Below are positions 4,992 through 55,012 of a stretch of DNA of 64,000 nucleotides, one piece after another (within the stretch, counting starts at the first letter, position 1; each line of letters begins with the position of its first letter). A model generated the notes under the pieces. That model was not told where the DNA came from. It saw only the letters and a program-made list of their open reading frames with translations, and ran no database searches. The position numbers were made by a program, and so were the translations under genes. Origin of the DNA: Actinacidiphila guanduensis (GTDB lineage Bacteria > Actinomycetota > Actinomycetes > Streptomycetales > Streptomycetaceae); the NCBI RefSeq assembly GCF_900103985.1, contig NZ_FNIE01000002.1, positions 496,001 through 560,000 of the forward strand. The letters are read 5' to 3'.

Positions 4992-5110
4992 GAGTTGGCC
5001 TCCCGTCCACGGGACGTGGCGTGCTGCGCACCGCCGTTTTGGATGGGCGCCGTGACGGCACAGATGCCGTGTGACATGAAGCCTCCTGACGTGAGTGGAT
5101 CTCGTGAAAT

Positions 5111-5138
5111 ATTCTATGGATGAGACTTCGCGTGTCAA
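5111..5138 (-). promoter_or_regulatory. Near-consensus promoter with operator-like dyad
   Basis: On the minus strand TTGACA is followed after 16 bases by TAGAAT, close to the housekeeping consensus and striking in this GC-rich DNA. The -35 lies inside the inverted repeat CGTGT/ACACG (5131-5154), a likely operator. It drives the PP-loop gene at 4194-4991. Confidence 0.6.
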
Positions 5139-5980: not shown

Positions 5981-6892
5981 CTACGTGAGTTCCTTGCCCT
6001 GACGGATCTCCCAAGGACCGATGGGAACGAAGTGGACATCGTCGAAGTAGCGGAGCCAGGCCGCAATCGTTTCGACTGCACGCTGGGCCTGCTCGGCGGA
6101 GAGGTCTCCTGCAGCGAGCAGCTCAGCTTGCATTTCGGCGAGATTCATCCGCCCTGCAGCTGTGAGTCCCTGCAGCTCGGGCATGGCATGGAGGCGGCCC
6201 AGGATTGCGGAGCCGAACGCCTGCTCATCAAGGCCAGGGCCGATGTCGAGGTACGTCAGGTCCCGGATTACACCAGCAAGCACATCGCTCCCGATATGCC
6301 GGTGTCGCCCGTTGTAGACGCGGTAGAGCCGATCCGGGTTTCGTGTCTCCGGTAGCCATCGCGCTGGTTGCTCGTCTTGGCCAGGCACGACAACGCGGGG
6401 GCTGTCTTCGTCACTCTGCAAGAGGGATGCCTGCTCACGTATCTGCTCCGCCAGCTCAACCGTCCCGGGCACTGCCGTAGCCTCTATGGCGGCCAGTACG
6501 CGTTCCACCTCCGGGTGGGCCTTGCCGGTTTCGATGAGCAGTTCGATGTTCGCCGCGGGTACTCGGCCGGTGGCCTTGCCGGTGAGGTTGGCGGACCCCA
6601 CAAGGCAGCGATCATCGGCTACGTAGAGCTTGGCGTGCAGGTTGTGGCACAGCCGGACGGTGGCACGCCCGTCCCGTTGCGCAAGCTCGGCGATCTCAGG
6701 ATCGGAGACGCCTGCGGCTACCTCGGGAACGGACCATCGGGTGACGCATGTGATCTCCCCGACTTTGGTCGGCACGGCATCGAGCGCTGCCTGGAAGACC
6801 TCTTTCTTGATGAAGGGGGCAACCAGGACGACACGGTCGGTCGCGGTAGCGAGGAGCTGCTCGACCTGCTGCCAGACGTGATCAACCGTCAC
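5981..6892 (-). CDS. Phospholipase-D-like nuclease
   Basis: A 303-residue protein starting at the GTG at 6892, which overlaps the stop of the GHKL ATPase gene (GTGA). It has one HKD motif, H86-x-K88-x4-D93-x6-GSxN (LHAKLYVADDRCLVGSANLT), the signature of PLD-superfamily nucleases that act as dimers. The C-terminal half is acidic and helical with a Trp/Tyr-rich end. It is the third gene of a tightly coupled helicase/GHKL ATPase/PLD operon divergent from sspABCD, so DNA cleavage within the Ssp-associated restriction module is the likely role. Specificity cannot be read from sequence. Confidence 0.8.
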   Translation of the reverse strand: MTVDHVWQQVEQLLATATDRVVLVAPFIKKEVFQAALDAVPTKVGEITCVTRWSVPEVAAGVSDPEIAELAQRDGRATVRLCHNLHAKLYVADDRCLVGSANLTGKATGRVPAANIELLIETGKAHPEVERVLAAIEATAVPGTVELAEQIREQASLLQSDEDSPRVVVPGQDEQPARWLPETRNPDRLYRVYNGRHRHIGSDVLAGVIRDLTYLDIGPGLDEQAFGSAILGRLHAMPELQGLTAAGRMNLAEMQAELLAAGDLSAEQAQRAVETIAAWLRYFDDVHFVPIGPWEIRQGKELT

Positions 6893-8757
6893 TCGTCATC
6901 CTCGTCGTCGGCGTCGCTGGCGCCGAGGAACTCGCTGGCGAGGCGACCCCAGTCCTGGCGCATCCGCTTCGCGCGTTCGCGGGGTTTCTCTGGCTGCTCG
7001 TCTTCGAAGCGAGCCCAGGAGATCAGGATGAGTTTGAAAGCGTTGGCCGCGGCGGTGAGGCGCGCAGCGAGTTCCTCGCGACTCGCGCCCTCGATGTCCC
7101 CGTCGAGGACCGAGATCAGGTCGCTGTAGACCGGGTGGTCCATATTGAGGGCGACCTGCAGCATGCCAGGGATGTATTCGACGTTGAAGAAGGCTGGCGA
7201 GTCGGGGTTGCGACTGGTGAGGAGGCGGACGTGCTTTCCCTGCGACATCGTCTCTTCGATGATGCGCTGGGCATCGGCCGCGTTGTAGCGGTGTGTCTCG
7301 ACCAGGCTCTCAAACTGGATCTGCTTACTGATCTCTTCGGGAGTCTCCTCGGCGAGCTGGTCAGTGAGGCTTGGTCGCGTCTCGGTGCGCCGGCGCTGGA
7401 CCGCTACCTCAGCCTGGATCTCGACGGTCTCGTGCCGCTTGCGGCTGGAGCGCGTGCCCTCGGTCTGATGCGCCAGCTCGGTGCGCAGACGGCCGAGGAG
7501 CTTCTCGCGGATGTGATAGACGATCTCGATCAGGGGAAGGCGCCGGTCGCCCTCCTCACGCAGTTCTTCCCGGTACTCCTCCCAGGACAGTCCTGCGGCT
7601 TCCTCGCGCCAGTTGAAGTGGGCGAGACTGGAGAAGATGTTTGCGGCCTGCTTGTTGTTGGTGACGCCGAACACCTCGTCGAGAGCCGGGGGAAAGTCGA
7701 TCTCGACGCCCCACCATCGCTCGACCGGGTCGTAGGAATTGATCCAGCCGGTGTCGAGGTCAAGTTCGCGGTCGGCCCGGATCAGGGAGATCCCGAGGTT
7801 CTTCGCGGCGTGTTTGCCCCAAGGGGTGTCACCAGGCTTGAGGCTCGGTGCCACGTTCGCCGGCCAGGGCTCGCCCTCGATGTCGGTTCGGCGGGCGGCG
7901 TCAACTGCGATGGAGGAGCGCACCAGGACCGGGTAGTCCTGGCCATCGGCGCCGCGAACCATGAACCTCTCCATGCCGACCTCCCCGGTGTTGCCAGCAC
8001 CGTAGGCGCGGAACATCGGTTTCTTGTCGAACGGGGTGGGCGTGGAACTCGGGCTCATGAGGTAGAGCGGGTCGTTGGGACGGGTGTCACCAGCACCAGG
8101 CAACTGGGCCCAGCCACGCACCGGAACGAGCTTGATCCGCTTGCCCTTGGCGATGAGGCGGCGGTAGATCCGTCCGATCAGATTCTCCGTGTTCGTGACG
8201 GTGGTCTGCGCGCCCCGCCACTGCACGCGTTCGAGTTCAGTCCACTGTACAAGGGTGCCGGAGCGGCCGAGGCCCTCGGACAAGTCTTGCCACTCGCCAG
8301 GCACCGCGTCGAGCTCGGGTTCCGGTACCTCTTCGCAGCCGGCGGCGATCTCCTTGAGATCCAGATAAGTGTGCAGCGCGTTCTCCGGGCCGTTGGTCCA
8401 GGACCAGACGTCCACGCGGTTGCACTGCGAGATGCTGGAGTTCGGCAGGCCGACGCCGAACCGGCCAATGCCTTTGCGTTGCTGTCGGGTGCCGGCACCG
8501 AAGCGAAGAGACTGCCGGAGCGTTTCGGGGTCCATGCCGTGTCCGTTGTCGAGGACAGCTATCTTCTCGACGCGATACCGCGTACGGAGCCCGGTGTGCT
8601 CGGTGCCCTCGACGACGAACAGCTCGACGAGTTCGGCCTCGGCTTCGAGGCCGTTGTCGATGAGTTCGGCGATGGCGTGCGCGGTGGACTTGTAGCCGCT
8701 GTCCTGCAGAGCCTTGACCGTCAAATCGGAGGTGACGATCGAATACTTGGATGTCAT
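6889..8757 (-). CDS. GHKL (HSP90/MutL-type) ATPase
   Basis: The product is 622 residues from the ATG at 8757, which overlaps the helicase stop codon as ATGA; the upstream in-frame start at 8769 is less likely. The N-terminal domain shows the Bergerat fold: N-box AIAELIDNGLEAEA, G1 box DNGHGMD, and G2 region GIGRFGVGLPNSS. The middle and C-terminal parts are helical and acidic, ending in a DDEDDE tail. Stand-alone GHKL ATPases beside helicases and nucleases occur in several defence loci. Coupling to the helicase and PLD genes by 4-bp overlaps suggests one complex. Confidence 0.82.
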   Translation of the reverse strand: MTSKYSIVTSDLTVKALQDSGYKSTAHAIAELIDNGLEAEAELVELFVVEGTEHTGLRTRYRVEKIAVLDNGHGMDPETLRQSLRFGAGTRQQRKGIGRFGVGLPNSSISQCNRVDVWSWTNGPENALHTYLDLKEIAAGCEEVPEPELDAVPGEWQDLSEGLGRSGTLVQWTELERVQWRGAQTTVTNTENLIGRIYRRLIAKGKRIKLVPVRGWAQLPGAGDTRPNDPLYLMSPSSTPTPFDKKPMFRAYGAGNTGEVGMERFMVRGADGQDYPVLVRSSIAVDAARRTDIEGEPWPANVAPSLKPGDTPWGKHAAKNLGISLIRADRELDLDTGWINSYDPVERWWGVEIDFPPALDEVFGVTNNKQAANIFSSLAHFNWREEAAGLSWEEYREELREEGDRRLPLIEIVYHIREKLLGRLRTELAHQTEGTRSSRKRHETVEIQAEVAVQRRRTETRPSLTDQLAEETPEEISKQIQFESLVETHRYNAADAQRIIEETMSQGKHVRLLTSRNPDSPAFFNVEYIPGMLQVALNMDHPVYSDLISVLDGDIEGASREELAARLTAAANAFKLILISWARFEDEQPEKPRERAKRMRQDWGRLASEFLGASDADDEDDE

Positions 8758-10373
8758 CGGGTGCTCCACACGTCTTCCCAGTTGGTGAATGCTTCCGCTA
8801 CGTCGCCGAAGCCCGGGAGTTCGGGGTCGATGACGGTGACGATGTCGCAGGTCGGGGTTCCGCCGGCCTGCGGGCCGCGGATGACCCGTCCGACCATCTG
8901 GCTGTACAGAACCAGGGATCGGGTCGGGCGAGCGATGACGGCCGCGCTCGCGGCGGGTGCATCGAATCCGGTGGTCAGGACGCCGTAGTTCGAAAGGACC
9001 ATCGGCCGGCTGCTGGTGCCCTTGAAGCGTGCGATGGCCCGGTCGCGGTGACGCGGAGGGGACTCGGCCGTCACCTGGTCTGCGTCAAGGCCGAGAGCGG
9101 ACAGGATCGCTACAAGCAGGCGGCTGTGTTCGACGGATGCGGCGAAGAGCAGGATTCGTTCATGGTTCTTGCTCAAGTCAAGGACTGTCCGGACGACCTG
9201 GAGGTTCCACTGCACGTTGCTGGCGAGCCGGGCCATGAGTGTGTCGGGGATGTCGAAGGATGCGGCGAGGGCCTGCTTATCCCGACTGCTGAGGGTGGTG
9301 CCGGATTCCGCGGCGACGGTGCGAAACGTCGGTCGGGCGAGGTAGCCCTGTTCGATCAGGGCGGTGACCGGGTTGTCGTAGCCGTCGATCTCCAGCATCA
9401 CCTTCTGGTGGGCGAAGAAATCGGCGAGCCTCTCGTCTTCGGTGAGGTCCGCCCAAGTCCGACCGGGGGTCGCGGTCAGGCCCAGCAAGCTGGAGTCGCT
9501 GCGAAGGGTGAGCGCATCGACAGTGCGGCGGTAGGTCGGGGCGATGGCTTGGTGGGCCTCGTCGAAGGTCGTGAGGGTAGTACGGATGCCCAGCTTGTCG
9601 AGGAACGTCGTATCGGTGTTCGCTGCAGCGCTGGCCTTGTCGAGGCCGAGCACGATGATGCCGTCGTTGACGCCGTCGAGGTCGGTAGGTGCGTCCCCCC
9701 ACATGCGCACGATGGAGATCTCACGGTTACCGAGGGCGCCCCATGCCCTCTCGGCCTCAAGGGTGGCCTGCTCGAGCAGCTCGCGGCCCCGCGCGAGCCA
9801 GACCACGACGGTCGGCTCGTGCCGCCGCAGGTGGTCGCAGATGATGTTCATGGCGGTGCGGGTCTTGCCGACGCCGGTGGGCAGGTGCAGGACGACCCGT
9901 CGTTCGCCGGAGTACAGCAGTCGCTGCACCCGGCAGGCAGCGAGCCGCTGGTGGGGGAAGAGCGCGTACTGCGGGGTGCAAACACTGCGCAACGCGGTGG
10001 GGATCTCCGGAGCCCGGTCGATGATGAGCCCGAGGAATCCGAGCAGCGTACGACGCTGCTCCTGCGACCACGGCAGTGAGGCGAGGAGATCACTGGAGGG
10101 ATCTACGATGCCGACGCCGAGACGCTCGGCGAGTTCGGTGATTTTCTGCTCGGGGAGCATCTCGAGGAACCGCGAACGGTCATCCGGATCCCCGATGATC
10201 CGCTCGGGTGAGACGGCGGAGGCTGCCACCCTGCGCAGCGCCGTCTCCGCGTCCTGATCGCGGTACAGGAGGTCCAGCAGGTTGCAAGCGTTGTCGCCCA
10301 GGAGGCTGCGGACATACGGGAGAGGCGCGGAGTCCAGGACGGACTCAAATGCGATGCCAGGTGATCCGATCAC
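8754..10373 (-). CDS. Superfamily 2 DNA/RNA helicase
   Basis: A 539-residue protein with a GTG start at 10373. It has an N-terminal extension of about 135 residues, then Walker A LPTGVGKT (164-171), DEAH (271-274), the TATPGR motif III region and the motif VI-like QMVGRVIRGPQ near the C-terminus. It heads the divergent operon helicase, GHKL ATPase, PLD nuclease. By layout the trio resembles the SspFGH effector cassette reported next to some SspABCD modules, but I cannot confirm homology without alignment. The 430-bp region upstream, shared with sspA, contains a perfect LexA box. Confidence 0.85.
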   Translation of the reverse strand: MIGSPGIAFESVLDSAPLPYVRSLLGDNACNLLDLLYRDQDAETALRRVAASAVSPERIIGDPDDRSRFLEMLPEQKITELAERLGVGIVDPSSDLLASLPWSQEQRRTLLGFLGLIIDRAPEIPTALRSVCTPQYALFPHQRLAACRVQRLLYSGERRVVLHLPTGVGKTRTAMNIICDHLRRHEPTVVVWLARGRELLEQATLEAERAWGALGNREISIVRMWGDAPTDLDGVNDGIIVLGLDKASAAANTDTTFLDKLGIRTTLTTFDEAHQAIAPTYRRTVDALTLRSDSSLLGLTATPGRTWADLTEDERLADFFAHQKVMLEIDGYDNPVTALIEQGYLARPTFRTVAAESGTTLSSRDKQALAASFDIPDTLMARLASNVQWNLQVVRTVLDLSKNHERILLFAASVEHSRLLVAILSALGLDADQVTAESPPRHRDRAIARFKGTSSRPMVLSNYGVLTTGFDAPAASAAVIARPTRSLVLYSQMVGRVIRGPQAGGTPTCDIVTVIDPELPGFGDVAEAFTNWEDVWSTR

Positions 10374-10803: not shown

Positions 10804-11973
10804 GTGACTTTTCAGTCACCGGATGTGGGTCTGGTCTACCTCGACTACAACGCTACTGCTCCTACTCGCCCCGAAGCCCTCCAAGCCACTCTTGCCGCGA
10901 TGAACAGCGTGGGGAACGCCTCGAGTACGCACCGATCCGGCCGCGGTGCCGCCGAACGTGTGGATCTGGCGCGCCGTCAGCTCGCTGACCTGCTGAACTG
11001 CTCCCATGGGGAGATCGTCTTCACATCAGGTGCGACGGAGGCGAACAACCTTGCACTGCGTGCGGCGTTCGCATCCGGCGGGCGGCTAGCGACGAGCGCG
11101 GTGGAGCACCCGGCCATTCTTGAGACAGCCAAAGCGATCACGGCAGATCAGCCGGGAGCTCTGGTCGTGCTGGCCGTGGACGCCGACGGCCTGGTGGACA
11201 TGGACGCCCTGCATGCTGCTCTGGCGACTCGGGACGTCGGCGTGGTGTCGCTGATGGCGGCGAACAACGAGACAGGCGTGCTGACCGACCTTGCGCCGGT
11301 CACCAAAGCCGCGCACGAGGCGGGCGCCCTGGTCCACACCGACGCGACGCAGATGGTGGGCCGACTGCCGATCGATCTCGCCGAGACGGACGTCGACCTG
11401 CTATCGCTGTCTGCTCACAAGTTCGGCGGCCCGCAGGGCGTGGGAGCGCTGTTCGTCCGCCGCGGTGCTGCGCTTCCATACCGCCCGCTGCTGTTCGGTG
11501 GTGGGCAGGAGCGCGGCTGGCGGGCCGGCACGCTGAATGTGGCGGGCATCGCTGGTGCAGGGGCTGCGGCTGAGGCTGCCCGCCTCGGCATGGCCGCCGA
11601 GGTGCCGCGAATTACACGGTTGCGGGACCTGCTGGAGGCGGCGCTTGTATCGCAGGTTGGCGACTGCCGCGTCAATGGAGCAGCTGACCGCCGGCTGCCG
11701 GGCGTCACCAGCATCACCTTCCACAGCGCCCCGGCGGACGCCGTCCTAGCGTCGATGCCTGACGTGGCCGCTTCGGAGGGGAGCGCATGCTCGTCGGGCG
11801 CGCCGAGCCCGAGTCATGTGCTCCTGGCCATGGGGCGGAGCCGGGAAGAGGCAGAGTGCACCGTCCGGTTCTCTCTGGGGTACGGCACGACCGCTGACGA
11901 CATCGACCGAGCCGTAGCCTCGACGGTTCGTGCAGTCCAACATGTGCGCGCCACCCTCGCATCCGCAACGTAG
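10804..11973 (+). CDS. sspA: SspA cysteine desulfurase
   Basis: The product is a PLP-dependent class V aminotransferase fold of 389 residues. Visible are YLDYNATAPTRPEA at the N-terminus, SGATEANN, His101 (EHPA), the PLP lysine K206 in SLSAHKFGG and the catalytic C329 in SEGSACSSG. It removes sulfur from cysteine to form the persulfide that feeds DNA phosphorothioation. I prefer the GTG at 10804, which has GGGGTGG just upstream; an ATG at 10792 in the same frame has no ribosome site. It heads the sspABCD run and is separated from sspB by 57 bp. IscS/NifS-type activity is certain; assignment to Ssp rests on the next three genes. Confidence 0.88.
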   Translation: MTFQSPDVGLVYLDYNATAPTRPEALQATLAAMNSVGNASSTHRSGRGAAERVDLARRQLADLLNCSHGEIVFTSGATEANNLALRAAFASGGRLATSAVEHPAILETAKAITADQPGALVVLAVDADGLVDMDALHAALATRDVGVVSLMAANNETGVLTDLAPVTKAAHEAGALVHTDATQMVGRLPIDLAETDVDLLSLSAHKFGGPQGVGALFVRRGAALPYRPLLFGGGQERGWRAGTLNVAGIAGAGAAAEAARLGMAAEVPRITRLRDLLEAALVSQVGDCRVNGAADRRLPGVTSITFHSAPADAVLASMPDVAASEGSACSSGAPSPSHVLLAMGRSREEAECTVRFSLGYGTTADDIDRAVASTVRAVQHVRATLASAT

Positions 11974-12030
11974 CCGCACCTGCCCAGCAAGATCCACTTT
12001 TACCTGAATGGACACGGGAGAACACCTCGC

Positions 12031-13131
12031 ATGTCAGATAGCCGGCTCGCGAACGCCGCCAACTTCTCCTTTGCGCGCCACGAGACCTTCGCACCGCGCT
12101 TCGGGTGGCTCCACAAGGCGTACATGCAGGTGAAGAAGAACCCCGAGACGTTCCTTGCCGATGATGCCCCGGTGCTTCTCGGCGTGGGCAAGAACATGGC
12201 CAACTCTATGCGGTACTGGTCGAAGGCATTCAAGCTGACCCGCGAGTTCTACGGTGACGACGCCAACTCCCGGGCGATGCTGTCCTTCCCCACCTGGGAG
12301 GCGCGCTGGCTGCTCGACGAGGACGGCGCTGACCCATACTTGGAGGAGCACGGCAGCCTGTGGCTGCTGCACTGGTGGTTGCTGTGCTCGCGGCCCGGCG
12401 CCAAGAGCTGGGCGCCCTCCTGGTACGTCGCCTTCCAGCTCGCCCCGTTCGCCCGCTTCACGTCCGCGGACCTGACGCAGCTGATCGTGCGTCACGTGAA
12501 CTTGTCCTACGACGAGGCCCCGGTCGAGGCGTCTGTCGCCAAGGACGTGGACTGCATCACCAAGATGTACGTTCCCGCCAAGCGCGCGAAGGGTGGCGCG
12601 CCTGGCGCGTTCGAGGACCTGATGGCCTGCCCGTTCCGTGAGCTCGGCCTGATGGAGGCGGTGGACCGGCCGACATCCGGCAGGCAGGAGTGGGAGTTCA
12701 CCACTGGCACGCGCATCACGCTGCCCGACCGGATCGTCGCCTACGCGTGCCTCGACTACGCGGCGAGCACCGCTCCCGAAGCCAGCTCCATCTCCTTGGC
12801 CCGGCTCGCGAACGAGAACGGCGCCCCAGGGCGTGCCTTCCGCATTCGGGAGCCTGAGCTCGCCGCGGCTCTGGAGCGAGTGGCTGCGACCACCCCGGGC
12901 CTGCAGGTCGTCGAAGCCGTGGGCCAGCGCAGTCTTGTCTTCGCATCCGATCCCTTCGAACTCGCCTGGGACGTCCTTGACGCTCAGTACGACAACGTCC
13001 GCAAACGGCCGGGCTTCCCTACCCGCGACGAGTGGGCTCGCGCCTACCCGAAGCTCGCCGCGGCCGAAGCACGAGAGCTGCGCCAGGGCGCTACCGAGCA
13101 GCAGCTCACCCTGAACGGAGATGACGAGTGA
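12031..13131 (+). CDS. sspB: SspB, DUF4007 protein (nicking component)
   Basis: A 366-residue protein whose N-terminus (FARHETFAPRFGWLHKAY, then PVLLGVGKNMANSMRYW) is the DUF4007 signature. In the characterised Ssp system the DUF4007 protein SspB nicks DNA to allow sulfur insertion into one strand. The middle is Trp-rich (LWLLHWWLLCSRPG) and the C-terminus is helical and acidic. Its stop overlaps the sspC start (GTGA), so it is translationally coupled to the ATPase. The absence of DndE and of an SMC-like DndD nearby supports Ssp over Dnd. Confidence 0.85.
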   Translation: MSDSRLANAANFSFARHETFAPRFGWLHKAYMQVKKNPETFLADDAPVLLGVGKNMANSMRYWSKAFKLTREFYGDDANSRAMLSFPTWEARWLLDEDGADPYLEEHGSLWLLHWWLLCSRPGAKSWAPSWYVAFQLAPFARFTSADLTQLIVRHVNLSYDEAPVEASVAKDVDCITKMYVPAKRAKGGAPGAFEDLMACPFRELGLMEAVDRPTSGRQEWEFTTGTRITLPDRIVAYACLDYAASTAPEASSISLARLANENGAPGRAFRIREPELAAALERVAATTPGLQVVEAVGQRSLVFASDPFELAWDVLDAQYDNVRKRPGFPTRDEWARAYPKLAAAEARELRQGATEQQLTLNGDDE

Positions 13132-16100
13132 CCACCGCGACCCAGCGGCCCAAGACTGTCCGCAAGACCACCGGTGGCCTCGAGTTTCCCATCGGCGTGG
13201 AACTCGTAGGTTCCCGCATGCGCTCCACCAACCTAGAACGCGACGTCCTCGACGAGCTCCACTCGCCGTATGTCGGCGCCCGCGCCCTCGACGTACTCGA
13301 CCGTCTGGGCAGCGCACTCGGGGACCTGCGCCGCACCCGATCCTGGTCGTTCACCGGCCCCTACGGCTCCGGCAAGTCGACGCTCGCCAACCTGATCGAC
13401 GCGCTCCTTGGGCACGACAAGGTCCGCCGCGCTGAGGCGCAGGAGGTGCTGGCGGGCACCAGCAGCGGCCTCACCCAGCGGTTCTTCGCAGCGTGTGAGG
13501 AGCTCGCACCGGTTGGCTTCCTGGGTGCCGTGACGACTGCACGCCGTGAACCGCTCGTCGCCACGCTTTCTCGGGCCCTGCACACCGCAGCCCAGCGTCG
13601 CTGGCCTAGCCGCACCCCAAAGTCCGTATCGACGGCGCTCGCGCGTTGCCTGGACCCATCGACCGCGCAGCCGCAGGACATCATCGCGGCGGTCGCCGCC
13701 CTGTGCGCGCAGCAGCCGCTGCTTCTGATCGTTGACGAGTTCGGCAAAACTCTTGAGCACCTCGCCGGGAATAGCCAGTTCGCCACTGCCAAGGAGGACC
13801 TGTTTCTCCTGCAGGAACTGGCTGAGAGGAGCGCGGGTCCCAAGGGTCTGCCGCTGTTCATGGTGACGCTGCAGCACCTCTCGTTCACCGACTACGCCGC
13901 GCAGTCCAGCGAGCTGCAGACCCGCGAGTGGGCGAAGATTCAAGGTCGCTTCGAAAGCGTCACGTTCATCCCCCATCTCGGCGACTCCGTGCAGCTGATG
14001 CGGCGGCGTCTCGACCAGTCGGGCGTGGCCGAGACGGGTCAGAAGCTGATCTCCGCCTACGCGCAGGCGGCGGAGGAGGCGTGGCGCGAGCACGGCCTGA
14101 ACGATGTCGTGGTCCTCGCAGCGCAGGACTTCAAGGACCTGTATCCACTGCATCCTCTGACTGCGATCGCGGCGCCGTTCCTCGCCTCTCAGATCGGCCA
14201 GCACGACCGCAGCCTGTCCGGGTTCCTCAACAACGACGAACCCCACACGGTCCGCCGCTCGCTCGACTCGTTCTCAAAGGCCAAACCGCGCCGCGCCAGC
14301 ACCGTCAAGCTGCCCCAGCTGTACGACTTCTTCCTTGATTCCGGCCGGACGTCACTGCTTGCCTCAAGCAACGCAAGCCGCTGGATCGAGATCGAATCTC
14401 GCATCACCCAGGCCAACGGCCTGTCCACCGTGGACCAAGACCTGCTGCGCACCATCGGCATGCTGAACCTGATCGATGAGGACGGTGCCTTGCGGGCTAC
14501 CGCCGCGATGATCTACTTCGCTTTGCATGAGCCCACCGAGGCTGCTGTAGCAAAGGAGTTCTCCGCCCTCGAAGAGCAGCTACAGGATCTCGTCGAGCGC
14601 GGCTTCCTCGTCCACCGGCGCTTCAATGGTGAGTACCGGTTGTGGCGCGGCACCGACGTGGACATCGACGCGCGTTTGCGCGAGGCCCACGGCCACCTCG
14701 ACGAGCCCACCGTCATCCAACGGCTCGGCGACTACCTTCCGCTCGCGGTCGCGGCCGGCAGACACAGCCAGATCACCGGCATGCTCCGCGCCCTGTTCGT
14801 CCAGGTCACCAGTGCACAGACCAAGGCCATCACCGGGCCCGATGAGCTCGCCGACCACGCTGACGGCCTTCTTGTCTTCCACCTTGGCACCGTCGATGAC
14901 CGGCCCGTCGTGGAGTCCACTCTGCCAGTAGTCCTCGGCGTCACCGAGGAACCGGGCCTCGTCCTGCGAGCCGCGTTCAACCTTGTTGCGCTGGAGGAAT
15001 TGCAGCTGGACAAGACCCTCGATGCAGTTGCACGGCGGGAGATCAGCGAGCGAACATCCATGGCGAAACGCGAGCTGCTTCAGCTGCTGGGCGCTGCGTT
15101 CTTCCCGCCCACCTCGCGGGCGACATGGCGGCTGTGGCGCTCGGGGATCGCCGCCGACTCCGAAGTCGGCGAGGTGATCGAAGGGCGCAGCCTCAGCGGC
15201 CTCGCGTCCATCGCCTGCGACCGGGTGTTCCCGGCAACACCGCACATCCGCAATGAAATGCTCGGCCGGCACGAGTTGACCAGTCAGGGCGCCAAGGCTC
15301 GCCGCGAACTGCTGACTGCCATGCTGCTCAAGTCCGGTGAGCAGTACCTGGGGATCCAGCTATACCCGGCCGAGCGCGCCATGTACAGCGGCGCGCTCGC
15401 GTACATGGGCCTGCACCGGGAGAACGGTGGCGCGCGCGACGACACGTCGACATCACTGCTGCCCTACGGCTTCTCCCGACCAGGCCCGGCCCAGGAACAC
15501 ACCCGTCCGGTGTGGGAGGCCCTGGAGGACGCACTGTCGCAAGCGAACGAGCGCACGAGCCTAGAGCAGATCGTCCGGGTTCTCATGATGCCGCCGTACG
15601 GAGTAAAGGCGGGCGTGGTGCCGCTGCTCGTGGTCACCGCGCTGATCGTGCGAAGCCAGGACGTCGCCCTGTTCGAGGATGGCTCCTACCTGCCCCGCCT
15701 GACGCCTGACGTGGTCGAGCGCATGGTGAAGGCACCCGGCCGTTTCTCCGTGAAGGCCACGCCGGTCGGAGACGGGCTGCGCCACAGCGTGGTAAAGAAC
15801 CTGTCCCAAGCCCTGAAGGTGGAGCCGCCGCGCTCTCAGGCGCTGCGCAACCCAGCTCTGCTTGCCGTTACACGAGCGCTGATGGAGCGGGTCATGGTGC
15901 TCACCCCATACGCGCGGCGCACTAGGCGTATCAGCAAGGACGCCATCGCTGTCCGCTCCGCCCTCTTCGCCGCGCAGGACCCGGATGAGCTGCTCTTCCA
16001 GGCCCTGCCAAGGGCTCTCGGCCTGGACCCGATCACCCCGGAGCAGCGCAAGAGCACGACCGGGAACAAGGGCTACGTCGAGCGCCTGACCGCCGCCGTC

Positions 16101-16688
16101 GACGAAATCTCCGGTGCCGACCGCGCCCTTCGAACTCAGGTGATCGAAACGATCGCCAAGGAGTTCCGCCTGCCCACCGCGTTGCCCGAGCTGCGCCGCG
16201 CCCTTGCATCCAGGCTGAAGGGCTTCGCCGGTGTCGCGCTCAACCTAGAGCTGCGCGGCTTCGTCGCCATAGCTCTCAATGAGGCGCTGCCCGACGAGGA
16301 CTGGCTGGACCCGATGATCGTCCGGTTGTCCCACGCGGCCCTCGGTGACTGGTCCGACAATGACGTCACCGTCTTCCCACGGAAGGTACGGGAAATGGCC
16401 AGCGCCCTCGACCGCGTCAGCCACCTGTACAAGAGCAACGAGCCAGCAGATACATCCCAGGAAGAGGTCGAAGCACGGCTGCTCACCCTGACAGACAAGG
16501 ATGGGGCGGAACAGCGCACCCTGATCTACCTGCCCAAGCAGGCCCAGCGGGAAGCTGAGACCCTCGCTGTCAGTGTCCTGGAGCAAGCTAAGAAGGCGCT
16601 CGGCCCGGACGGTGCTCGAATCCTGCTCGCCGCCCTGGCCCAGCGCGTCACTGACCCCGCGACCAGCGAACTTGAGAGGACGGAGTGA
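13128..16688 (+). CDS. sspC: SspC, large P-loop ATPase
   Basis: The 1186-residue product has Walker A GPYGSGKS (residues 77-84) and Walker B LLLIVDEFGK (about 199-208), followed by a long helical body. It starts at a GTG inside the sspB stop and its own stop overlaps the sspD GTG. In Ssp systems the ATPase acts with SspB and SspD in strand-specific modification. Size and P-loop arrangement also recall BrxC/PglY of BREX, but no BREX methylase, PglZ or protease gene is present and the DUF4007 partner settles the call. Confidence 0.82.
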   Translation: MTTATQRPKTVRKTTGGLEFPIGVELVGSRMRSTNLERDVLDELHSPYVGARALDVLDRLGSALGDLRRTRSWSFTGPYGSGKSTLANLIDALLGHDKVRRAEAQEVLAGTSSGLTQRFFAACEELAPVGFLGAVTTARREPLVATLSRALHTAAQRRWPSRTPKSVSTALARCLDPSTAQPQDIIAAVAALCAQQPLLLIVDEFGKTLEHLAGNSQFATAKEDLFLLQELAERSAGPKGLPLFMVTLQHLSFTDYAAQSSELQTREWAKIQGRFESVTFIPHLGDSVQLMRRRLDQSGVAETGQKLISAYAQAAEEAWREHGLNDVVVLAAQDFKDLYPLHPLTAIAAPFLASQIGQHDRSLSGFLNNDEPHTVRRSLDSFSKAKPRRASTVKLPQLYDFFLDSGRTSLLASSNASRWIEIESRITQANGLSTVDQDLLRTIGMLNLIDEDGALRATAAMIYFALHEPTEAAVAKEFSALEEQLQDLVERGFLVHRRFNGEYRLWRGTDVDIDARLREAHGHLDEPTVIQRLGDYLPLAVAAGRHSQITGMLRALFVQVTSAQTKAITGPDELADHADGLLVFHLGTVDDRPVVESTLPVVLGVTEEPGLVLRAAFNLVALEELQLDKTLDAVARREISERTSMAKRELLQLLGAAFFPPTSRATWRLWRSGIAADSEVGEVIEGRSLSGLASIACDRVFPATPHIRNEMLGRHELTSQGAKARRELLTAMLLKSGEQYLGIQLYPAERAMYSGALAYMGLHRENGGARDDTSTSLLPYGFSRPGPAQEHTRPVWEALEDALSQANERTSLEQIVRVLMMPPYGVKAGVVPLLVVTALIVRSQDVALFEDGSYLPRLTPDVVERMVKAPGRFSVKATPVGDGLRHSVVKNLSQALKVEPPRSQALRNPALLAVTRALMERVMVLTPYARRTRRISKDAIAVRSALFAAQDPDELLFQALPRALGLDPITPEQRKSTTGNKGYVERLTAAVDEISGADRALRTQVIETIAKEFRLPTALPELRRALASRLKGFAGVALNLELRGFVAIALNEALPDEDWLDPMIVRLSHAALGDWSDNDVTVFPRKVREMASALDRVSHLYKSNEPADTSQEEVEARLLTLTDKDGAEQRTLIYLPKQAQREAETLAVSVLEQAKKALGPDGARILLAALAQRVTDPATSELERTE

Positions 16689-17527
16689 CTATGACCGACA
16701 CCACAGCCTCCGACAAAAAAGTCCGGCACGTCCTGGGCTTGTCGGGCGGTAAGGACTCCTCCGCCCTCGCCATCTATATGCGCGACCGCGTGCCAGAGAT
16801 GGAGTATTTCTTCTGCGACACCGGCGCCGAGCTGCCCGAGACGTATGAGTACCTCAACAAGCTCGAAGCCGCCGTCGGCAAGCCCATTGTGCGCCTGAAC
16901 ACCGACCGCGACTTCGACCACTGGCTAGAGGTTTACCAGGGCACCCTGCCTAGCCCTCAAATGCGCTGGTGCACCAAGAACCTCAAGATCAAGCCTCTGG
17001 AGGAGTGGGTCGGCGACGACGAGGTGATCTCCTACGTCGCCATCCGCGCCGACGAGAACCGCCTCGGCTACGTCAGCACCAAACCCAACATCACGGCGGT
17101 CTTCCCCTTCCGTGAGGACGGTATCGACCGTGAAGGCGTCAACCGTATCCTCGACGAGGCTGGCACCGGCCTGCCGGACTACTACGAGTGGCGCACCCGG
17201 TCTGGCTGCTACTTCTGCTTCTTCCAGCGCAAGCACGAGTGGCTCGGCCTCAAGGACCGCCACCCAGAACTCTTCGACAAGGCCGTTGCCTACGAGGAGA
17301 AGGTCCGCCACCAGGGCACCGCCATGCAGGGCCGTGACTACACGTGGTCCCAGGGCGAGTCCCTGCACGAGCTCATAGAGCGCCGCGAGGAGATCCAGGC
17401 CAAGCACGAGGCCAACCTCGCCCGAGCTGCGAAACGGATCAAGCCCAACCGACCCCTGCTCGAGGTCCTCTCGGATGCCCTCGACGCCGACGATGACGAG
17501 GCCGGCTGCTCCGTCTGCCACCTCTAG
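16685..17527 (+). CDS. sspD: SspD, PAPS-reductase-like ATP pyrophosphatase
   Basis: A 280-residue protein with the PP-loop SGGKDS at residues 20-25, the MRWCTKNLKIKPLEEW region and the SGCYFCFFQRKHEW cluster, matching the DndC/SspD group that activates the backbone phosphate for sulfur transfer. Start is either the GTG at 16685, overlapping the sspC stop, or the ATG at 16691 behind GGAG; both give the same domain. A good Rho-independent terminator follows, closing the sspABCD operon. Confidence 0.86.
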   Translation: MTMTDTTASDKKVRHVLGLSGGKDSSALAIYMRDRVPEMEYFFCDTGAELPETYEYLNKLEAAVGKPIVRLNTDRDFDHWLEVYQGTLPSPQMRWCTKNLKIKPLEEWVGDDEVISYVAIRADENRLGYVSTKPNITAVFPFREDGIDREGVNRILDEAGTGLPDYYEWRTRSGCYFCFFQRKHEWLGLKDRHPELFDKAVAYEEKVRHQGTAMQGRDYTWSQGESLHELIERREEIQAKHEANLARAAKRIKPNRPLLEVLSDALDADDDEAGCSVCHL

Positions 17528-17589: not shown

Positions 17590-17649
17590 CGTTCGGCCGC
17601 CCGGCTGTCGGCGCTGCATGTAAGGATGTGTCAGCTCATCACATTACGG

Positions 17650-17895
17650 TCACCAAACGGAGCACAGGGGATATGGCGACGTCAGACATCGCTGCGTGCG
17701 GTCATCCGCCATCAGCCGGACGCCAGGGCGGTTTTCGAGATCCAGTTCGGCGTCACGCAGATGATGGACGTACCGGCACATCAGGTCCTGTGAGACGATC
17801 TCAGCTGACTCCCTCCCATCGCCATGGGAACAGCTCTCTGCGATCCAGAACATCGTCAATTCGGTACCCGACGAACCTGCCTCTATATCCGTCAA
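17650..17895 (-). CDS. Small hypothetical protein
   Basis: Eighty-one codons from an ATG at 17895, with acceptable codon use and an acidic helical stretch (AELDLENRPGVRLMADD). No family is recognised, it runs against its neighbours, and it could be a chance frame in the leader of the DGQHR gene. Confidence 0.3.
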   Translation of the reverse strand: MTDIEAGSSGTELTMFWIAESCSHGDGRESAEIVSQDLMCRYVHHLRDAELDLENRPGVRLMADDRTQRCLTSPYPLCSVW

Positions 17896-18123
17896 GTGAG
17901 CGGCGCTGGTCAGTTAGGCGACGCACTCTGGGCCTTATGGAGCGCTGGTTGCGACCGTCGAGGACGGTCTGCGATCAAGAACCTGAAGGGCCCTCTCTGC
18001 ACCCGCACAACCCGCCGGTCAGTATGCCGGGCGGCGCCACTCTTCGAGGGCGGTTCAGCACCGTCCCCAAGCGGGCACTCCGCGCTTAGCCCTCGCACTC
18101 CCTCCCCGACAACGAGGTACTTG

Positions 18124-19416
18124 ATGCCGTCCAAGACGTTCGTTCCCGCCTTCGAGGCTAAGGTGGGCAATTGGACTTATTACTCCTGCCTGATGAGCTA
18201 CGCCCAGGTGGCGCGCGAGATCAACTTCGCGCACGAGCTCGGCGGCAATCGTGATCTCGGCACGATGATCCAGCGTGGCGTCGGTACCCGCACGCAGGAG
18301 ATCACGGAGTACTTGCTCACCAATGAGAACAGGTTCCTCGGCGCGCTCATCATCGCGGTCTGGGGCGGCGATCCGAACTATCTGCCTGTAACTATGGACG
18401 CGGAGAACCAGGCCGTTCTTCAAGGACTGGACCGCAACTTCGGCGTCCTAACGTTCGACGGTACGCAGCAGTTCTTCGCGCTCGACGGTCAGCACAGGCT
18501 CAAAGCCATCAAGGATGCGATCAAGCAGAATCCGGAGTTGGGCAACGAAGACATCAACGTCATCGTGGTGCCGCACTTCGACACCGCAGACGGTCGTCGT
18601 CGGACCCGGCGATTGTTCACCAACATCAACCGGAACGCCAAGAGTACAAACCTGCAGGAGAACATCGCCCTTGACGAGGACGACAGCTTCGCCATCCTCA
18701 CTCGCCGCCTGTTGGACGAAGACGACTTCCTCAAACGCGACAGGGTCGTTCTCGTCTTCAGTAAAGTCGGTCAGGATGGCGAACTCGTCCTTGCCCAACG
18801 TTCCATCAACCAGGCCAGCCCTGCGTGGAGCACTATCGCCGTTCTCTACGACATCGTCAAGGAGATCGGCTACGACCTGCCCTGCACTGCTGGCGTGGCT
18901 AAGCAGCGAGCGACTGATGAACTCCTCGACCAGAGCTTCGAACTCCTGACCGTCCGACTTCACGAGCTCCTCGATGCGTGCGGGAACCTCCGCGAGCGCT
19001 ACCTTGCCGCTTTGTCGGGAAAGGATCTTCGGGCGCCCAAGGGCCGCGATGGAGCTGGCCACCCGTTCATGCGCCCGGCCGTTCAGAACCAGGTCGCTAA
19101 GGTCGTACGACACATCCTTGAGTCGGGAACCCTGGAGTGGCTGGAAATCATGAAGCGACTCTCCGCACTCGAGTGGAAGATGACCGCAGCCCCGTTTTCC
19201 TCGATGTGGATTGAGACTCCTGAAGGGACGAAAGCTAAGGGGAAGATGGCCAGCGGCAATACGCAGCTCCTGTATGACCTTCTGCAGGTGCACCTGGCGC
19301 CACGTTCCAAGGCCCAGATCAGCAGGGCGTTGCGCGCCTACTCCGACGTGATGAAGGCAAAATACCCCATCACGCCTGAGGATCTATTCGCGCTCCTCCC
19401 TGTCGACGCCGACTGA
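18124..19416 (+). CDS. DndB-like DGQHR protein
   Basis: A 430-residue protein; the ATG at 18124 follows GAGG, with an in-frame TTG one codon earlier. The DGQHR signature sits at residues 121-125 (FFALDGQHRLKAI), preceded by a Trp/Tyr-containing ligand-binding region and followed by FTNINRNAKSTNLQENI, which is characteristic of DndB. In Dnd systems DndB binds DNA and regulates modification; the related DUF262 domain of SspE senses phosphorothioate. Here it lies 600 bp after sspD and is followed by a GIY-YIG nuclease and a second DGQHR protein. The role as a PT sensor or regulator is inference. Confidence 0.85.
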   Translation: MPSKTFVPAFEAKVGNWTYYSCLMSYAQVAREINFAHELGGNRDLGTMIQRGVGTRTQEITEYLLTNENRFLGALIIAVWGGDPNYLPVTMDAENQAVLQGLDRNFGVLTFDGTQQFFALDGQHRLKAIKDAIKQNPELGNEDINVIVVPHFDTADGRRRTRRLFTNINRNAKSTNLQENIALDEDDSFAILTRRLLDEDDFLKRDRVVLVFSKVGQDGELVLAQRSINQASPAWSTIAVLYDIVKEIGYDLPCTAGVAKQRATDELLDQSFELLTVRLHELLDACGNLRERYLAALSGKDLRAPKGRDGAGHPFMRPAVQNQVAKVVRHILESGTLEWLEIMKRLSALEWKMTAAPFSSMWIETPEGTKAKGKMASGNTQLLYDLLQVHLAPRSKAQISRALRAYSDVMKAKYPITPEDLFALLPVDAD

Positions 19417-19895: not shown

Positions 19896-20690
19896 TTGTT
19901 CCACTCGTTTAAGATCGAGCTCCTGAGTGTGCGCGAATATATCACACTGGGTCGAGAACGATCATACGCCATCCCGCGAGTTCCCGGGATTTATATCTGG
20001 ACGGCCGACCTGCGGGACATAGGCGCCAGCGCTGTGAATCGCGATCCTGACGAAGTTTTCACGGAACTCCAGAAGAGGGTTAGTTCGCCTCGTGGCGAGC
20101 CGCTGGAATCCGGAATGGTTGGAAATTATCGACACATTGCGATCCAGGATCGCCCTCCTCAACTGACTCCTGCCTCATCTCGGCGGATGGCTGAAATGAT
20201 AACCGCAAGAAATCTTCATCTAGAGTGGGCCTTCCTATGTGCGACCATGTTTCAGCGCCCTCTCTATATCGGGAAGGCGGTAAATCTGGCAACCCGAATT
20301 AGGAACCACGTTAAGCCCGGTTCGCATCTGAGTGGAGAACTGGAGCGCCTTGGTTTGACGGTTAGTGAGTGCACGGTTCTACTACTCCCGGTCCAGTCTC
20401 CCGATAACATTGCCGATCTTGTGGCGGCCGAAGAGGAGCGCATTCGGAATCGACGCAGGGGCGTTCCATATTCTCCCTCGCCTCGTGAGATTCTTAACGA
20501 CGAGAACCAGCAAGTCGAAGAAGTTGACGTTTATGATTGGGACGTCGATGCCGGAGATGATCTTAACGATGACGTGCAGTTGGAGCCAGAAGCATCAGCC
20601 GAACTGAAGCAGGTCGACCAGCTGGTGCGCCTTGCTGAATCACTAACCATCAGAGTTGCTCACCCTCTCCTCAACATGAAGATGGACTAG
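19896..20690 (+). CDS. GIY-YIG nuclease with a long insert
   Basis: I choose the TTG at 19896, seven bases behind AAGGGG, giving 264 residues; the frame is open from 19845 without a ribosome site. GIY is at residues 31-33 (VPGIYIW) and YIG at 124-126 (RPLYIGKAVNL), followed by RIRNH and the expected catalytic Glu in AAEEERIR near 179-181. The usual GIY-to-YIG spacing is about ten residues, so about 90 residues are inserted. The C-terminus is very acidic (VDVYDWDVDAGDDLNDD). The gene uses many A/T-ending codons, unlike sspABCD, and is coupled by a two-base gap to the next DGQHR gene. A DNA-cleaving effector is inferred. Confidence 0.75.
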   Translation: MFHSFKIELLSVREYITLGRERSYAIPRVPGIYIWTADLRDIGASAVNRDPDEVFTELQKRVSSPRGEPLESGMVGNYRHIAIQDRPPQLTPASSRRMAEMITARNLHLEWAFLCATMFQRPLYIGKAVNLATRIRNHVKPGSHLSGELERLGLTVSECTVLLLPVQSPDNIADLVAAEEERIRNRRRGVPYSPSPREILNDENQQVEEVDVYDWDVDAGDDLNDDVQLEPEASAELKQVDQLVRLAESLTIRVAHPLLNMKMD

Positions 20691-20692
20691 CC

Positions 20693-22696
20693 ATGAGTAT
20701 CTCGTCAGCCATGGGCCGGCGCCGGGCAGCCTACACAGACCAATATGCTTTTGTAACTGGCGAATATGCGATCGGTGACGAGCGCGTTCCATACTTCTCG
20801 ATCTCGATGACGATCCGAGAAGCAGATCAGTTTCTGCGTCTGGCACGAGAGTTGGCTTTCGACGATCGTGAGCCAGTCAACTTCGAGGAGCTATTTCAGC
20901 GAGCCGTCGATGAAGACCGTGCCACCGGGCCGATTGCGACATACCTGCTCCAGCCGGGATCTCTAAAATTCTTTAACTCCTTCACGGTGGTTCTTCTGCC
21001 GGTTGATCCAGATCAGCGAGGTTCTATCACCGACGGCTATGTTGATGATCCGGATGCGCCGTCCGAAGCTCCCAATTCTGGTTTGACGAGAAAGTCAATT
21101 GGACCTGTTCAGATCGACTATCTACCTGAGAGTGATATTGGTTTCATTCGATGGAGTACCAAGCGAACTCGGGCAGTAATCCTGGATGGCCAGCACCGCT
21201 TCCTAGCCTTCAAGAAGATCCTCGACTCGGAGCGTCATAATCTGCTCAGGCCGGAGACCACAAAGATCCCGGTCCTGCTCTTGGTTCTAGACCCTAAAGC
21301 TGGGTTCGTCCCTGCTCGGGATCACGAGAGCGTCCTACAGGCTTGCCGTAGCATCTTCGTCGCGCTCAACAAGCACGCTGTGGCCGTCTCCAAGACACGC
21401 ACTTATCTCCTGGATGACCAAGACTTGGTTTCGGTTAGTATGCGCCGCCTCATGACGCAACTTAGGAACTCTGACGTCGATCGGCAGCAGCCGACTTATC
21501 GGATCCCATTGGCACTGGTTGACTGGCATTCCGACCAGGCGAAATTTGACCGCGGATACTACCTGACGAGCATTTTGGGACTGCACGATACAATTCGGCA
21601 TGTCTACCCAAGTCGGTGCGATGAGACAGACTACGAAAAGCTGCTAGATTTCATTACGGACACAACCGCAATGATCACCCCCGGCGCCGACTCCCGATGG
21701 TCCGAACTAGCAATAAGGGAACGCGTCAAAAAAGCAGAGGAAGACGCCCTGCCATTTATTTTCTCTGTCGAAGAAGTTTCTGCCGCCGCTGAAGCTTTTT
21801 CCCGAGGGGTCGGCCAGGCTATCGTTCGTCCGCTCTTGGAGATCACTCCTTATCGCCAGCTTAGGGAGCGGTACGAACTGGAAGGCTTCGTTGGAGGGGA
21901 GCGTGAACTGTGGCTAGGCTCAGATAAAGCCGGAAAGCAGTCCTATGTAACCCGCACAGGCGACGACCCGAGCGACCTGGCCCGCCAGATTTCGGACGAG
22001 GTTAAATCGGGCAATAACGCCTTCGCCGTCGTTTTTCAGCGAGGACTTCTTCTTTCTGCCGTGAAGTTCGATACTGCACGATCCGAGTTCACGGAACGCT
22101 GGAATCTGCCGTCGACTCGGTTCGCCGTCCTAGATTCCTGGATTGATCGAGTAAACACCCGCATCGTTCCCTTTTTGGCGAATGCCAACTTTTGGCTTGG
22201 GGTCGGGGTCAAAGGCGATAGGAGCGTCAACTACACGAAGGTCGGCGAGAAGGGAATCAAGGGTTTCGTATCACTTGCCACGATGTGTCCGATCGAAGTG
22301 CTCCAAGCGGATGCCTCGAGACTGACGGATTCCATCATCGAGAGCTTTACCAAAGATGAGGCGGCGGCGTGGAATATGGTATCGGATCCCGAAAATTCTT
22401 TTCTTCGCGATGATAGGGCGATGGCTGTAGCCGCAGGCCAGAGACTGCAGTTTGCTGCCTACCAGTGGCTGCGTGATCAGTTTGCGCAAATTTCCCGCGG
22501 TCGCGCTTCGGGTGTACTTGCTGGGGTAGTTAGGGAAGCCTGTATGGAATTTCGCAATGCGGCCAAAGCGTACATCAAGAATGATCTGCGCGCGGCCAGT
22601 GCAACGGTCACCGACGACGAGGTATTGCTGGCAGTTCTCGTGTTGGGTGCTCGCAGGCTGGCCCTCATTTCGGATGCTTGCGCAGAGCGTATTTGA
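20693..22696 (+). CDS. Large DGQHR protein
   Basis: A 667-residue protein with DGQHR at 165-169 (RAVILDGQHRFLAFKKIL) and downstream ALNKHAVAVSKTRTYLLDDQD, the equivalent of the DndB NINRNAK segment. It is much longer than DndB, with a helical C-terminal extension of about 350 residues that I cannot assign. It begins two bases after the GIY-YIG stop, so the two are co-translated. Codon use is AT-shifted like the nuclease gene and unlike the surroundings, suggesting separate acquisition. Confidence 0.8.
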   Translation: MSISSAMGRRRAAYTDQYAFVTGEYAIGDERVPYFSISMTIREADQFLRLARELAFDDREPVNFEELFQRAVDEDRATGPIATYLLQPGSLKFFNSFTVVLLPVDPDQRGSITDGYVDDPDAPSEAPNSGLTRKSIGPVQIDYLPESDIGFIRWSTKRTRAVILDGQHRFLAFKKILDSERHNLLRPETTKIPVLLLVLDPKAGFVPARDHESVLQACRSIFVALNKHAVAVSKTRTYLLDDQDLVSVSMRRLMTQLRNSDVDRQQPTYRIPLALVDWHSDQAKFDRGYYLTSILGLHDTIRHVYPSRCDETDYEKLLDFITDTTAMITPGADSRWSELAIRERVKKAEEDALPFIFSVEEVSAAAEAFSRGVGQAIVRPLLEITPYRQLRERYELEGFVGGERELWLGSDKAGKQSYVTRTGDDPSDLARQISDEVKSGNNAFAVVFQRGLLLSAVKFDTARSEFTERWNLPSTRFAVLDSWIDRVNTRIVPFLANANFWLGVGVKGDRSVNYTKVGEKGIKGFVSLATMCPIEVLQADASRLTDSIIESFTKDEAAAWNMVSDPENSFLRDDRAMAVAAGQRLQFAAYQWLRDQFAQISRGRASGVLAGVVREACMEFRNAAKAYIKNDLRAASATVTDDEVLLAVLVLGARRLALISDACAERI

Positions 22697-49741: not shown

Positions 49742-49764
49742 AGCGACACTGGAGAGGAGGACCC

Positions 49765-54998: not shown

Positions 54999-55012
54999 CT
55001 GCTGCTTTGGAG

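What the first reader, a model, noticed from the sequence alone, without database searches (positions are those of the whole stretch)
10804..17527. Complete SspABCD phosphorothioation operon on a mobilizable element
Cysteine desulfurase, DUF4007 protein, 1186-residue ATPase and PP-loop protein are in the canonical order, with B/C and C/D overlapping by four bases. Genomic DNA of this strain should carry single-strand phosphorothioates.
Basis: partly seen in the sequence, partly recalled or inferred. Interest (0 to 1): 0.7.

Follow-up and report, generated by a model that had tools for sequence, protein, structure and literature searches.

The report
Sulfur-marked DNA defence with new effectors
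A soil bacterium carries genes that mark its DNA with sulfur, flanked by two sets of DNA-attacking genes that look like overlooked weapons of this anti-virus system, one of them sitting where the known weapon gene usually sits.

Summary
The operon is real: SspA, SspB (DUF4007), SspC and SspD are intact, in order, on an element bounded by a tRNA-Pro repeat and carrying a relaxase. The known effector SspE (DUF262) is absent from the whole genome (SspFGH not searched). Two effector-like modules flank sspABCD. (1) A divergent RadD-like helicase, GHKL ATPase and PLD (HKD) nuclease: present in 29 of 30 actinobacterial relatives; every full-length GHKL relative I checked, in several phyla and gene orders, has ssp genes nearby. 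(2) Downstream, where relatives carry sspE: a GIY-YIG-like protein plus a DndB-like DGQHR protein. Two loci 92% identical over 15.6 kb part exactly at the sspD stop codon, one into SspE, the other into this pair. In two genomes of other actinobacterial families the pair follows sspABCD, with no trio seen. In the window the first pair's GIY gene is decayed; a second pair is intact. I read both modules as effectors of phosphorothioate defence. Linkage is shown; PT modification, PT sensing and cleavage are inferred. Structure predictions failed (pLDDT 36).

The parts
4194..5138 (-). second PP-loop (SspD-like) protein, PP2
   Evidence: PADLOC SspD E 1e-14 over its second half; in 20 of 30 related ssp loci
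5212..5856 (-). protein with two helix-turn-helix-like stretches
   Evidence: HTH_17, BldC-like stretch; in 19 of 30 related loci
5981..6892 (-). trio: PLD/HKD nuclease
   Evidence: PF00614 27.1 bits, cut-off 21.9; HxK and GSAN motifs, conserved in 10 of 10 aligned
6889..8757 (-). trio: GHKL ATPase
   Evidence: PF13589 E 3e-20; ExxDN, DxGxGM, GRFGxG motifs
8754..10373 (-). trio: SF2 helicase (RadD-like; resembles the helicase part of PbeA)
   Evidence: Pfam ResIII, Helicase_C; PbeA E 1.5e-19; RadD E 1e-28, far below cut-off
10804..11973 (+). sspA, cysteine desulfurase
   Evidence: PADLOC SspA
12031..13131 (+). sspB, DUF4007
13128..16688 (+). sspC, ATPase
   Evidence: PADLOC SspC 1332 bits
16685..17527 (+). 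sspD, PP-loop protein (start GTG 16685 or ATG 16691)
   Evidence: PADLOC SspD
17626..18086 (+). decayed GIY1 (GIY-YIG-like) gene
   Evidence: N- and C-terminal parts align with intact relatives but contain stops and lack the middle
18124..19416 (+). DGQHR1 (DndB1), DndB-like protein
   Evidence: PF14072 E 6e-24, TIGR03187 over cut-off
19896..20690 (+). GIY2, GIY-YIG-like protein (probable start TTG 19896; ORF from 19845)
   Evidence: GIY and YIG motifs, invariant Arg and Glu across 4 relatives; no Pfam match
20693..22696 (+). DGQHR2 (DndB2), DndB-like protein
   Evidence: PF14072 E 5e-10, over cut-off
3723..3764 (.). left end repeat of the element (attL candidate)
   Evidence: 40 of 42 nt equal to 55016-55057
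55012..55086 (-). tRNA-Pro(CGG), right end of the element
   Evidence: ARAGORN
43129..44853 (-). relaxase (MobA/VirD2-like)
   Evidence: PF03432 E 2e-7
49480..51279 (+). tyrosine-recombinase-like ORF
   Evidence: PF14659 over cut-off, PF00589 below cut-off

Best explanation
This is a phosphorothioate (PT) defence island. SspABCD marks host DNA with sulfur on one strand. Instead of SspE it has two effector modules. Module T (helicase, GHKL ATPase, HKD nuclease) is most likely a complex that scans or unwinds DNA and cuts DNA lacking the right PT pattern; its helicase and HKD nuclease recall a split PbeA. Module G sits in the SspE slot: a DGQHR protein (DndB-like, by a published comparison related to SspE's DGQQR nucleotidase domain) would be the PT/DNA sensor and NTPase, and a separate GIY-YIG nuclease would replace SspE's fused HNH domain. 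Shown here: gene content, intact motifs, linkage across phyla, the slot swap, decay of one nuclease gene. Inferred: PT modification, PT sensing, DNA cleavage, anti-phage function.
For: Trio in 29 of 30 actinobacterial sspABCD loci. In 391 same-order genomes the 8 with full-length GHKL are exactly the 8 with close SspB (chance 1e-14 if genomes were independent, which they are not). Both other phylum-level hits and 11 of 11 opened plasmid records with at least 80% of GHKL have ssp genes nearby. Gene orders differ: divergent, co-directional, convergent. Slot: L031 and L041 are 92.3% identical over 15,566 bp up to the sspD stop codon, then SspE in one and GIY2-DGQHR2 in the other. sspABCD-GIY-DGQHR order on one strand in two genomes of other families. 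GIY-like/DGQHR pairs beside ssp or dnd genes on plasmids. DUF262 absent from the genome. Active-site motifs intact.
Against: No activity was tested. GIY2 has no Pfam match; profile comparison with GIY1 aligns only the YIG stretch. My DGQHR-SspE profile comparisons were not significant. Both structure models failed. 12 of 30 loci have trio and SspE together, 12 have neither SspE nor the pair, so the trio does not replace SspE. Trio is in only 12 of 61 plasmids with SspD by my measure. PLD not found in 2 of 11 plasmid loci. Some DndB-like relatives lack a GIY-like neighbour or any annotated PT gene.
Confidence: 0.65

Rival explanations
1. The DGQHR proteins are DndB-type regulators that limit PT insertion, and the GIY-YIG proteins are backup suicide nucleases or repair accessories; restriction is done by the trio.
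For: DndB has been described as a negative regulator, and standalone GIY-YIG nucleases near Dnd clusters as backups (PMC10853773, passages and section 17). DGQHR1 stays intact in the window although its GIY partner has decayed. Other DGQHR genes lack the GIY-like neighbour.
Against: The pair takes the place of SspE behind sspD in otherwise 92% identical loci and follows sspABCD where no trio was seen; the two genes stay neighbours across classes.
Confidence: 0.25
2. The trio is not a restriction effector but helps modification (opening DNA for SspBCD) or repairs nicks at PT sites.
For: It occurs together with SspE in 12 of 30 loci, so it may serve another step; RadD-like helicases and GHKL ATPases also occur in repair proteins.
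Against: The HKD nuclease motif is conserved; the sspABCD-pair loci L097 and L098 show no trio in the 20 kb read and 49 of 61 SspD plasmids lack it by my measure, so modification does not seem to need it.
Confidence: 0.2
3. The modules are independent defence systems that merely share islands with ssp genes.
For: Linkage is genetic only; the element carries other cargo; one DndB-like relative has no PT genes annotated on its plasmid.
Against: In the sets searched no full-length GHKL relative lay on a record or in a genome without ssp genes, across several phyla and gene orders.
Confidence: 0.07

Closest known systems
SspABCD-SspE
   Same: Modification genes; position of the effector right behind sspD; a DGQxR protein, and DUF262 is reported related to the DGQHR domain (PMC4619093, passages); SspE has been called the equivalent of DndB (PMC10853773, passage)
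   Different: SspE is one DUF262-HNH protein; here the DGQHR protein and a GIY-YIG-like nuclease are separate, and DUF262 is absent from the genome
SspABCD-SspFGH
   Same: Several-protein effector module beside sspABCD
   Different: Trio is helicase-GHKL-PLD, while SspFGH is described with a Walker A protein and an FtsK-like protein (PMC8092258, passages); in L076 trio and an FtsK-like row stand side by side
DndCDEA-PbeABCD
   Same: PbeA joins an HKD nuclease with an SF2 helicase (description in PMC10853773); the helicase here matches PbeA residues 249-617
   Different: Here helicase and HKD protein are separate, a GHKL ATPase is added, and the partner is Ssp
DndB / DGQHR family
   Same: DGQHR, QR and FxxxN motifs, PF14072 over cut-off
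   Different: Far below the DndB equivalog cut-off (67.5 and 15.7 of 328 bits); next to a GIY-YIG-like gene, not in a dnd operon
MzaB (MZA system)
   Same: N-terminal GHKL ATPase domain
   Different: Match limited to the first ~200 residues and far below cut-off (59 of 850 bits); different partner genes

Membership tests
SspABCD PT modification | SspA, SspB (DUF4007), SspC and SspD in one operon with intact motifs | tested here: met
SspABCD PT modification | single-strand PT in genomic DNA | not testable with these tools
   needs LC-MS
SspABCD-SspE | SspE (DUF262-DUF1524) present | tested here: not met
   no DUF262 match in the whole genome; the same search matched 8 of 14 control genomes
SspABCD-SspFGH | SspF, SspG and SspH beside sspBCD | not tested
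   no such search of the genome was made; none of the flanking proteins scanned with PADLOC matched an SspFGH family
GIY-YIG nuclease (GIY2) | GIY and YIG motifs with conserved Arg and Glu | tested here: met
   the pattern was chosen after seeing the sequences; 1 of 20,000 shuffles of GIY2 has it
GIY-YIG nuclease (GIY2) | profile or fold match | tested here: inconclusive
   no Pfam match, structure model pLDDT 36; GIY1 relative L039 is over the GIY_YIG_2 cut-off, L015 below it
DndB / DGQHR domain | PF14072 over cut-off, DGQHR motif | tested here: met
   both proteins
PbeA | HKD nuclease fused to SF2 helicase | tested here: not met
   separate genes; only the helicase part matches
PT restriction effector (function) | restricts phage or plasmid DNA in a PT-dependent way | not testable with these tools
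   genetic linkage only

The most novel reading that the evidence does not exclude
There are two undescribed classes of Ssp effector: a helicase-GHKL-HKD complex that accompanies SspBCD in several phyla, and a two-protein counterpart of SspE in which a DGQHR nucleotidase senses phosphorothioate and licenses a separate GIY-YIG nuclease. Together they account for a good part of the sspBCD clusters so far counted as lacking a restriction partner, and the second exchanges with SspE at a modular slot behind sspD.
Probability: 0.5. Interest if true: 0.78.

Novelty: new variant of a known kind. Interest (0 to 1): 0.63.

Why it matters
A 2021 survey reports that 2,211 of 2,678 sspBCD clusters have neither SspE nor SspFGH beside them and suggests further, unknown restriction partners (PMC8092258, passages). 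This locus and its relatives offer two concrete candidates with defined genes, active-site motifs and a natural swap experiment, so the open question becomes directly testable. If the DGQHR protein proves to be a PT sensor, the view of DndB-like proteins as mere regulators would need revision.

Tried and rejected
Trio as a simple replacement of SspE: rejected, both occur together in 12 of 30 loci. Trio as a known PADLOC system: its proteins match PbeA, MzaB, DrmC or ZacB only in part. A dnd cluster elsewhere in the genome: the only PF14072 (DndB) matches are the two cassette genes; other dnd genes were not searched. GIY2 on plasmids by direct search: none; relatives were found through the cyanobacterial DndB neighbours. 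GIY1 on plasmids: none by direct search. Structure prediction of GIY2 and DndB1: pLDDT 36, not used, no fold search made. Profile comparison GIY1-GIY2: only the YIG stretch. DGQHR-SspE: not significant. PDB sequence searches: nothing significant. Loci L045-L047 with distant SspB show no other window gene by tblastn except one 26% match to PP2 in L045; they were left out of the counts. Promoter/terminator scan: no more sites than in shuffles. One paper search with loose terms gave 2,428 mostly unrelated papers.
Full report
OBSERVATION. The four genes are there as described, intact and in order. B and C overlap by four bases; C and D do so only with the GTG start at 16685. The element is bounded by a repeat of the 3' part of tRNA-Pro(CGG), 40 of 42 nt, at 3723-3764 and 55016-55057, and carries a MobA-type relaxase and a tyrosine-recombinase-like ORF. 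'Mobilizable' is reasonable; transfer is not shown.

WHAT WAS MISSED, LEFT SIDE. Divergent from sspA lies a row of minus-strand genes: SF2 helicase (RadD-like, E 1e-28 but far below that model's cut-off; helicase part of PbeA), GHKL ATPase and PLD nuclease, a protein with two HTH-like stretches and a second PP-loop protein. Helicase/GHKL and GHKL/PLD overlap by four bases (coordinates; I set the GHKL start at the ATG 8757, shorter than the longest ORF). Motifs are intact: HxK and GSAN; ExxDN, DxGxGM and GRFGxG; GxGKT, DEAH, TATP and QxxGRxxR. The GHKL and HKD motifs are conserved in the 11 and 10 aligned relatives.

HOW TIGHTLY THE TRIO IS LINKED. A pattern-based search for close SspB relatives in one genome for each of 84,980 species gave 26 loci; with four loci from the order search (L041-L044) there are 30 with sspABCD like the window's. 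All three trio proteins are found in 29 of 30. The miss, L032, holds only 3 kb upstream of sspA, enough to have shown the helicase at its usual place. Some of the 30 are near-copies (L025/L027; L042-L044). Orientation is divergent in 28 and co-directional in L037, where the trio is far more diverged (32-44% identity). The second PP-loop gene is in 20 of 30 and the HTH gene in 19 of 30. In 391 genomes of the same order SspB was found in 11; 24 genomes match the GHKL profile at E<=1e-20, 8 of them over 1000 bits (the next has 125), exactly the 8 with close SspB, and in all 8 the trio lies beside sspABCD. The three genomes with distant SspB are not among the 24. In 396 genomes of the phylum the profile hits 3 at E<=1e-40: the own genome and two others, both with helicase-GHKL-PLD next to ssp genes (L085, a short contig starting inside sspC; L086). 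In 72,556 plasmids 21 records match GHKL at E<=1e-10 and 12 cover at least 80% of it; all 12 are among the 61 records with an SspD match at E<=1e-40. I opened 11 of the 12; the twelfth, H7, is a second Trichormus plasmid whose GHKL, DndB and SspD matches lie within 8 kb. All 11 carry sspB, C and D nearby (in L076 about 12 kb away, behind an FtsK-like row; in L068 and L070 SspC matches in two pieces), with helicase and GHKL adjacent: 4 Cyanobacteria, 6 Alphaproteobacteria, 1 Bacteroidota, co-directional or convergent. The PLD protein was found in 9 of 11; in L076 and L077 a 359-aa protein without Pfam match stands there, and their helicases match only at about 26%. A shorter GHKL match in Treponema (Spirochaetota) also lies in a DUF4007-(SspC-like)-cysteine desulfurase-helicase-GHKL-PLD row. 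The trio is not universal: 12 of 61 SspD plasmids have it by this measure.

RIGHT SIDE: THE SLOT BEHIND sspD. In the 30 loci the stretch after sspD holds an SspE-like protein in 12 (two representatives checked: DUF262 plus DUF1524; in L030 it lies 2.9 kb away, in L035 it is inverted), a GIY-YIG-like gene plus a DGQHR gene in 5 (GIY1-DndB1 in L015, L016, L021, L039; GIY2-DndB2 in L041), neither in 12, and cannot be read in L029. No locus has both. By counts alone this exclusivity is weak (0.037 with window and L087 included). The strong case is L031 against L041: 92.3% identity over 15,566 bp through the left operon and sspABCD, ending exactly at the sspD stop codon in both, followed by SspE in one and GIY2-DndB2 in the other. 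On a quick tree of 32 SspC proteins the three slot states need at least 7 changes, and L041 pairs with the SspE locus L031. At phylum level (396 genomes) the DndB1 profile finds the own genome and two others; in both, the order is sspA-B-C-D-GIY-DGQHR on one strand and no trio was detected in the 20 kb read, although in L098 the contig ends just behind the DGQHR gene. On plasmids six records match DndB1; I looked at four. In Roseobacter (with ssp and trio), Rhizobium K1/93 (with ssp and an FtsK-like gene) and Rhizobium NXC14 (with dndBCDE) a small protein with GIY and YIG-like motifs precedes it; Neorhizobium (L081) has no PT gene annotated beyond it. DndB2 has seven plasmid matches; I looked at four. 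Geminocystis and Trichormus have a GIY-like neighbour, ssp and trio (in Trichormus it is annotated as two short genes); in Cyanobacterium HL-69 and Asticcacaulis I saw no such neighbour.

IS IT REALLY GIY-YIG? GIY1 of L039 is just over the Pfam GIY_YIG_2 cut-off, that of L015 below it; GIY2 has no match. GIY2 and three relatives share the YIG stretch and an invariant Arg and Glu. A YIG-core pattern, chosen after seeing the sequences, occurs 9 times in 2.7 million six-frame residues: 8 hits belong to 5 distinct genes of this kind, 1 is unrelated; 1 of 20,000 shuffles of GIY2 has it. Models were too poor to help.

THE WINDOW'S OWN SLOT. Between sspD and DGQHR1 lies a decayed GIY1 gene whose N- and C-terminal parts are recognisable but which carries stops and lacks the middle. 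DGQHR1 is intact. A second, intact pair follows: GIY2 and, directly behind it, DGQHR2. The genome has no DUF262 gene. Of seven related trio-bearing genomes four have DUF262 genes and three none; G287 and G388, with a GIY-DGQHR pair in the slot, have one elsewhere. SspFGH was not searched.

MECHANISM. From the literature (PMC8092258 and PMC13251355, passages) SspABCD inserts single-strand PT, and SspE couples PT recognition through its DGQQR nucleotidase domain to an HNH nickase. A 2015 analysis reports similarity of DUF262 to the DGQHR domain of DndB and three shared motifs, QR, DGQHR and FxxxN (PMC4619093, passages), and a 2024 analysis calls SspE the equivalent of DndB (PMC10853773, passage). 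All three motifs occur in both DGQHR proteins here; my own profile comparisons with SspE were not significant, those between DndB1 and DndB2 were (97%). I propose that the pair is an SspE-like effector split into sensor and nuclease, and that the trio is a helicase-nuclease complex comparable in logic to PbeA or SspFGH. Shown: content, motifs, linkage, swap, decay. Inferred: everything biochemical.

LITERATURE AND NOVELTY. PMC10853773 (passages and section 17) mentions URI/GIY-YIG nucleases and HKD-helicase fusions near Dnd clusters and proposes backup roles for standalone GIY-YIG; in what I saw it does not describe the trio or the pair with Ssp. PMC12707154 and PMC13251355 (passages) name SspE, SspFGH, DndFGH or PbeABCD as partners; PMC12839542 (passages) treats BREX type 4. 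Searches pairing Ssp or PT terms with GHKL, HATPase, PLD, HKD, phospholipase D, DUF4007, DGQHR or GIY-YIG gave no title or abstract that describes either module; the library is open-access only, most hits were seen as listings, and the first Ssp paper (Xiong 2020) was not read. The PADLOC-DB scan gave only weak or partial matches for GHKL, PLD and DndB2 and none for GIY2. I call it a new variant of a known kind.

Noticed in passing
window 49480-51279 (+): Tyrosine-recombinase-like ORF with a strong LacI-type HTH match (PF00356, residues 397-439, E 2e-13) inside the frame, an odd combination.
   Followed up: no
window 28577-35303 (-): Two lantibiotic dehydratase-type proteins and a PCMT-type methyltransferase side by side, probably a lanthipeptide-type cluster on the same element.
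   Followed up: no
window 26678-27382 (-): Protein with a SUFU (suppressor of fused) domain, E 2e-18.
   Followed up: no
L076 9028-10107; L077 13795-14874: A 359-aa protein without Pfam match stands where the PLD nuclease is expected behind GHKL; perhaps another nuclease in the same place.
   Followed up: partly
L036 16016-18148 (-); L077 16228-17667 (-): Other proteins near sspD where SspE or the GIY-DGQHR pair is missing: an AAA_23 ATPase in L036, an Mrr-type restriction endonuclease in L077; possibly further effectors.
   Followed up: partly
window 4194-5138 (-): Second SspD-like PP-loop protein with an altered loop (GGGVQS) and a CxxC pair, kept in 20 of 30 related loci; its role is unknown.
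   Followed up: partly
window about 17545-17590: By eye a strong inverted repeat followed by T's lies right behind sspD, with a similar stretch in L015 (alignment); the terminator scan did not list it.
   Followed up: no
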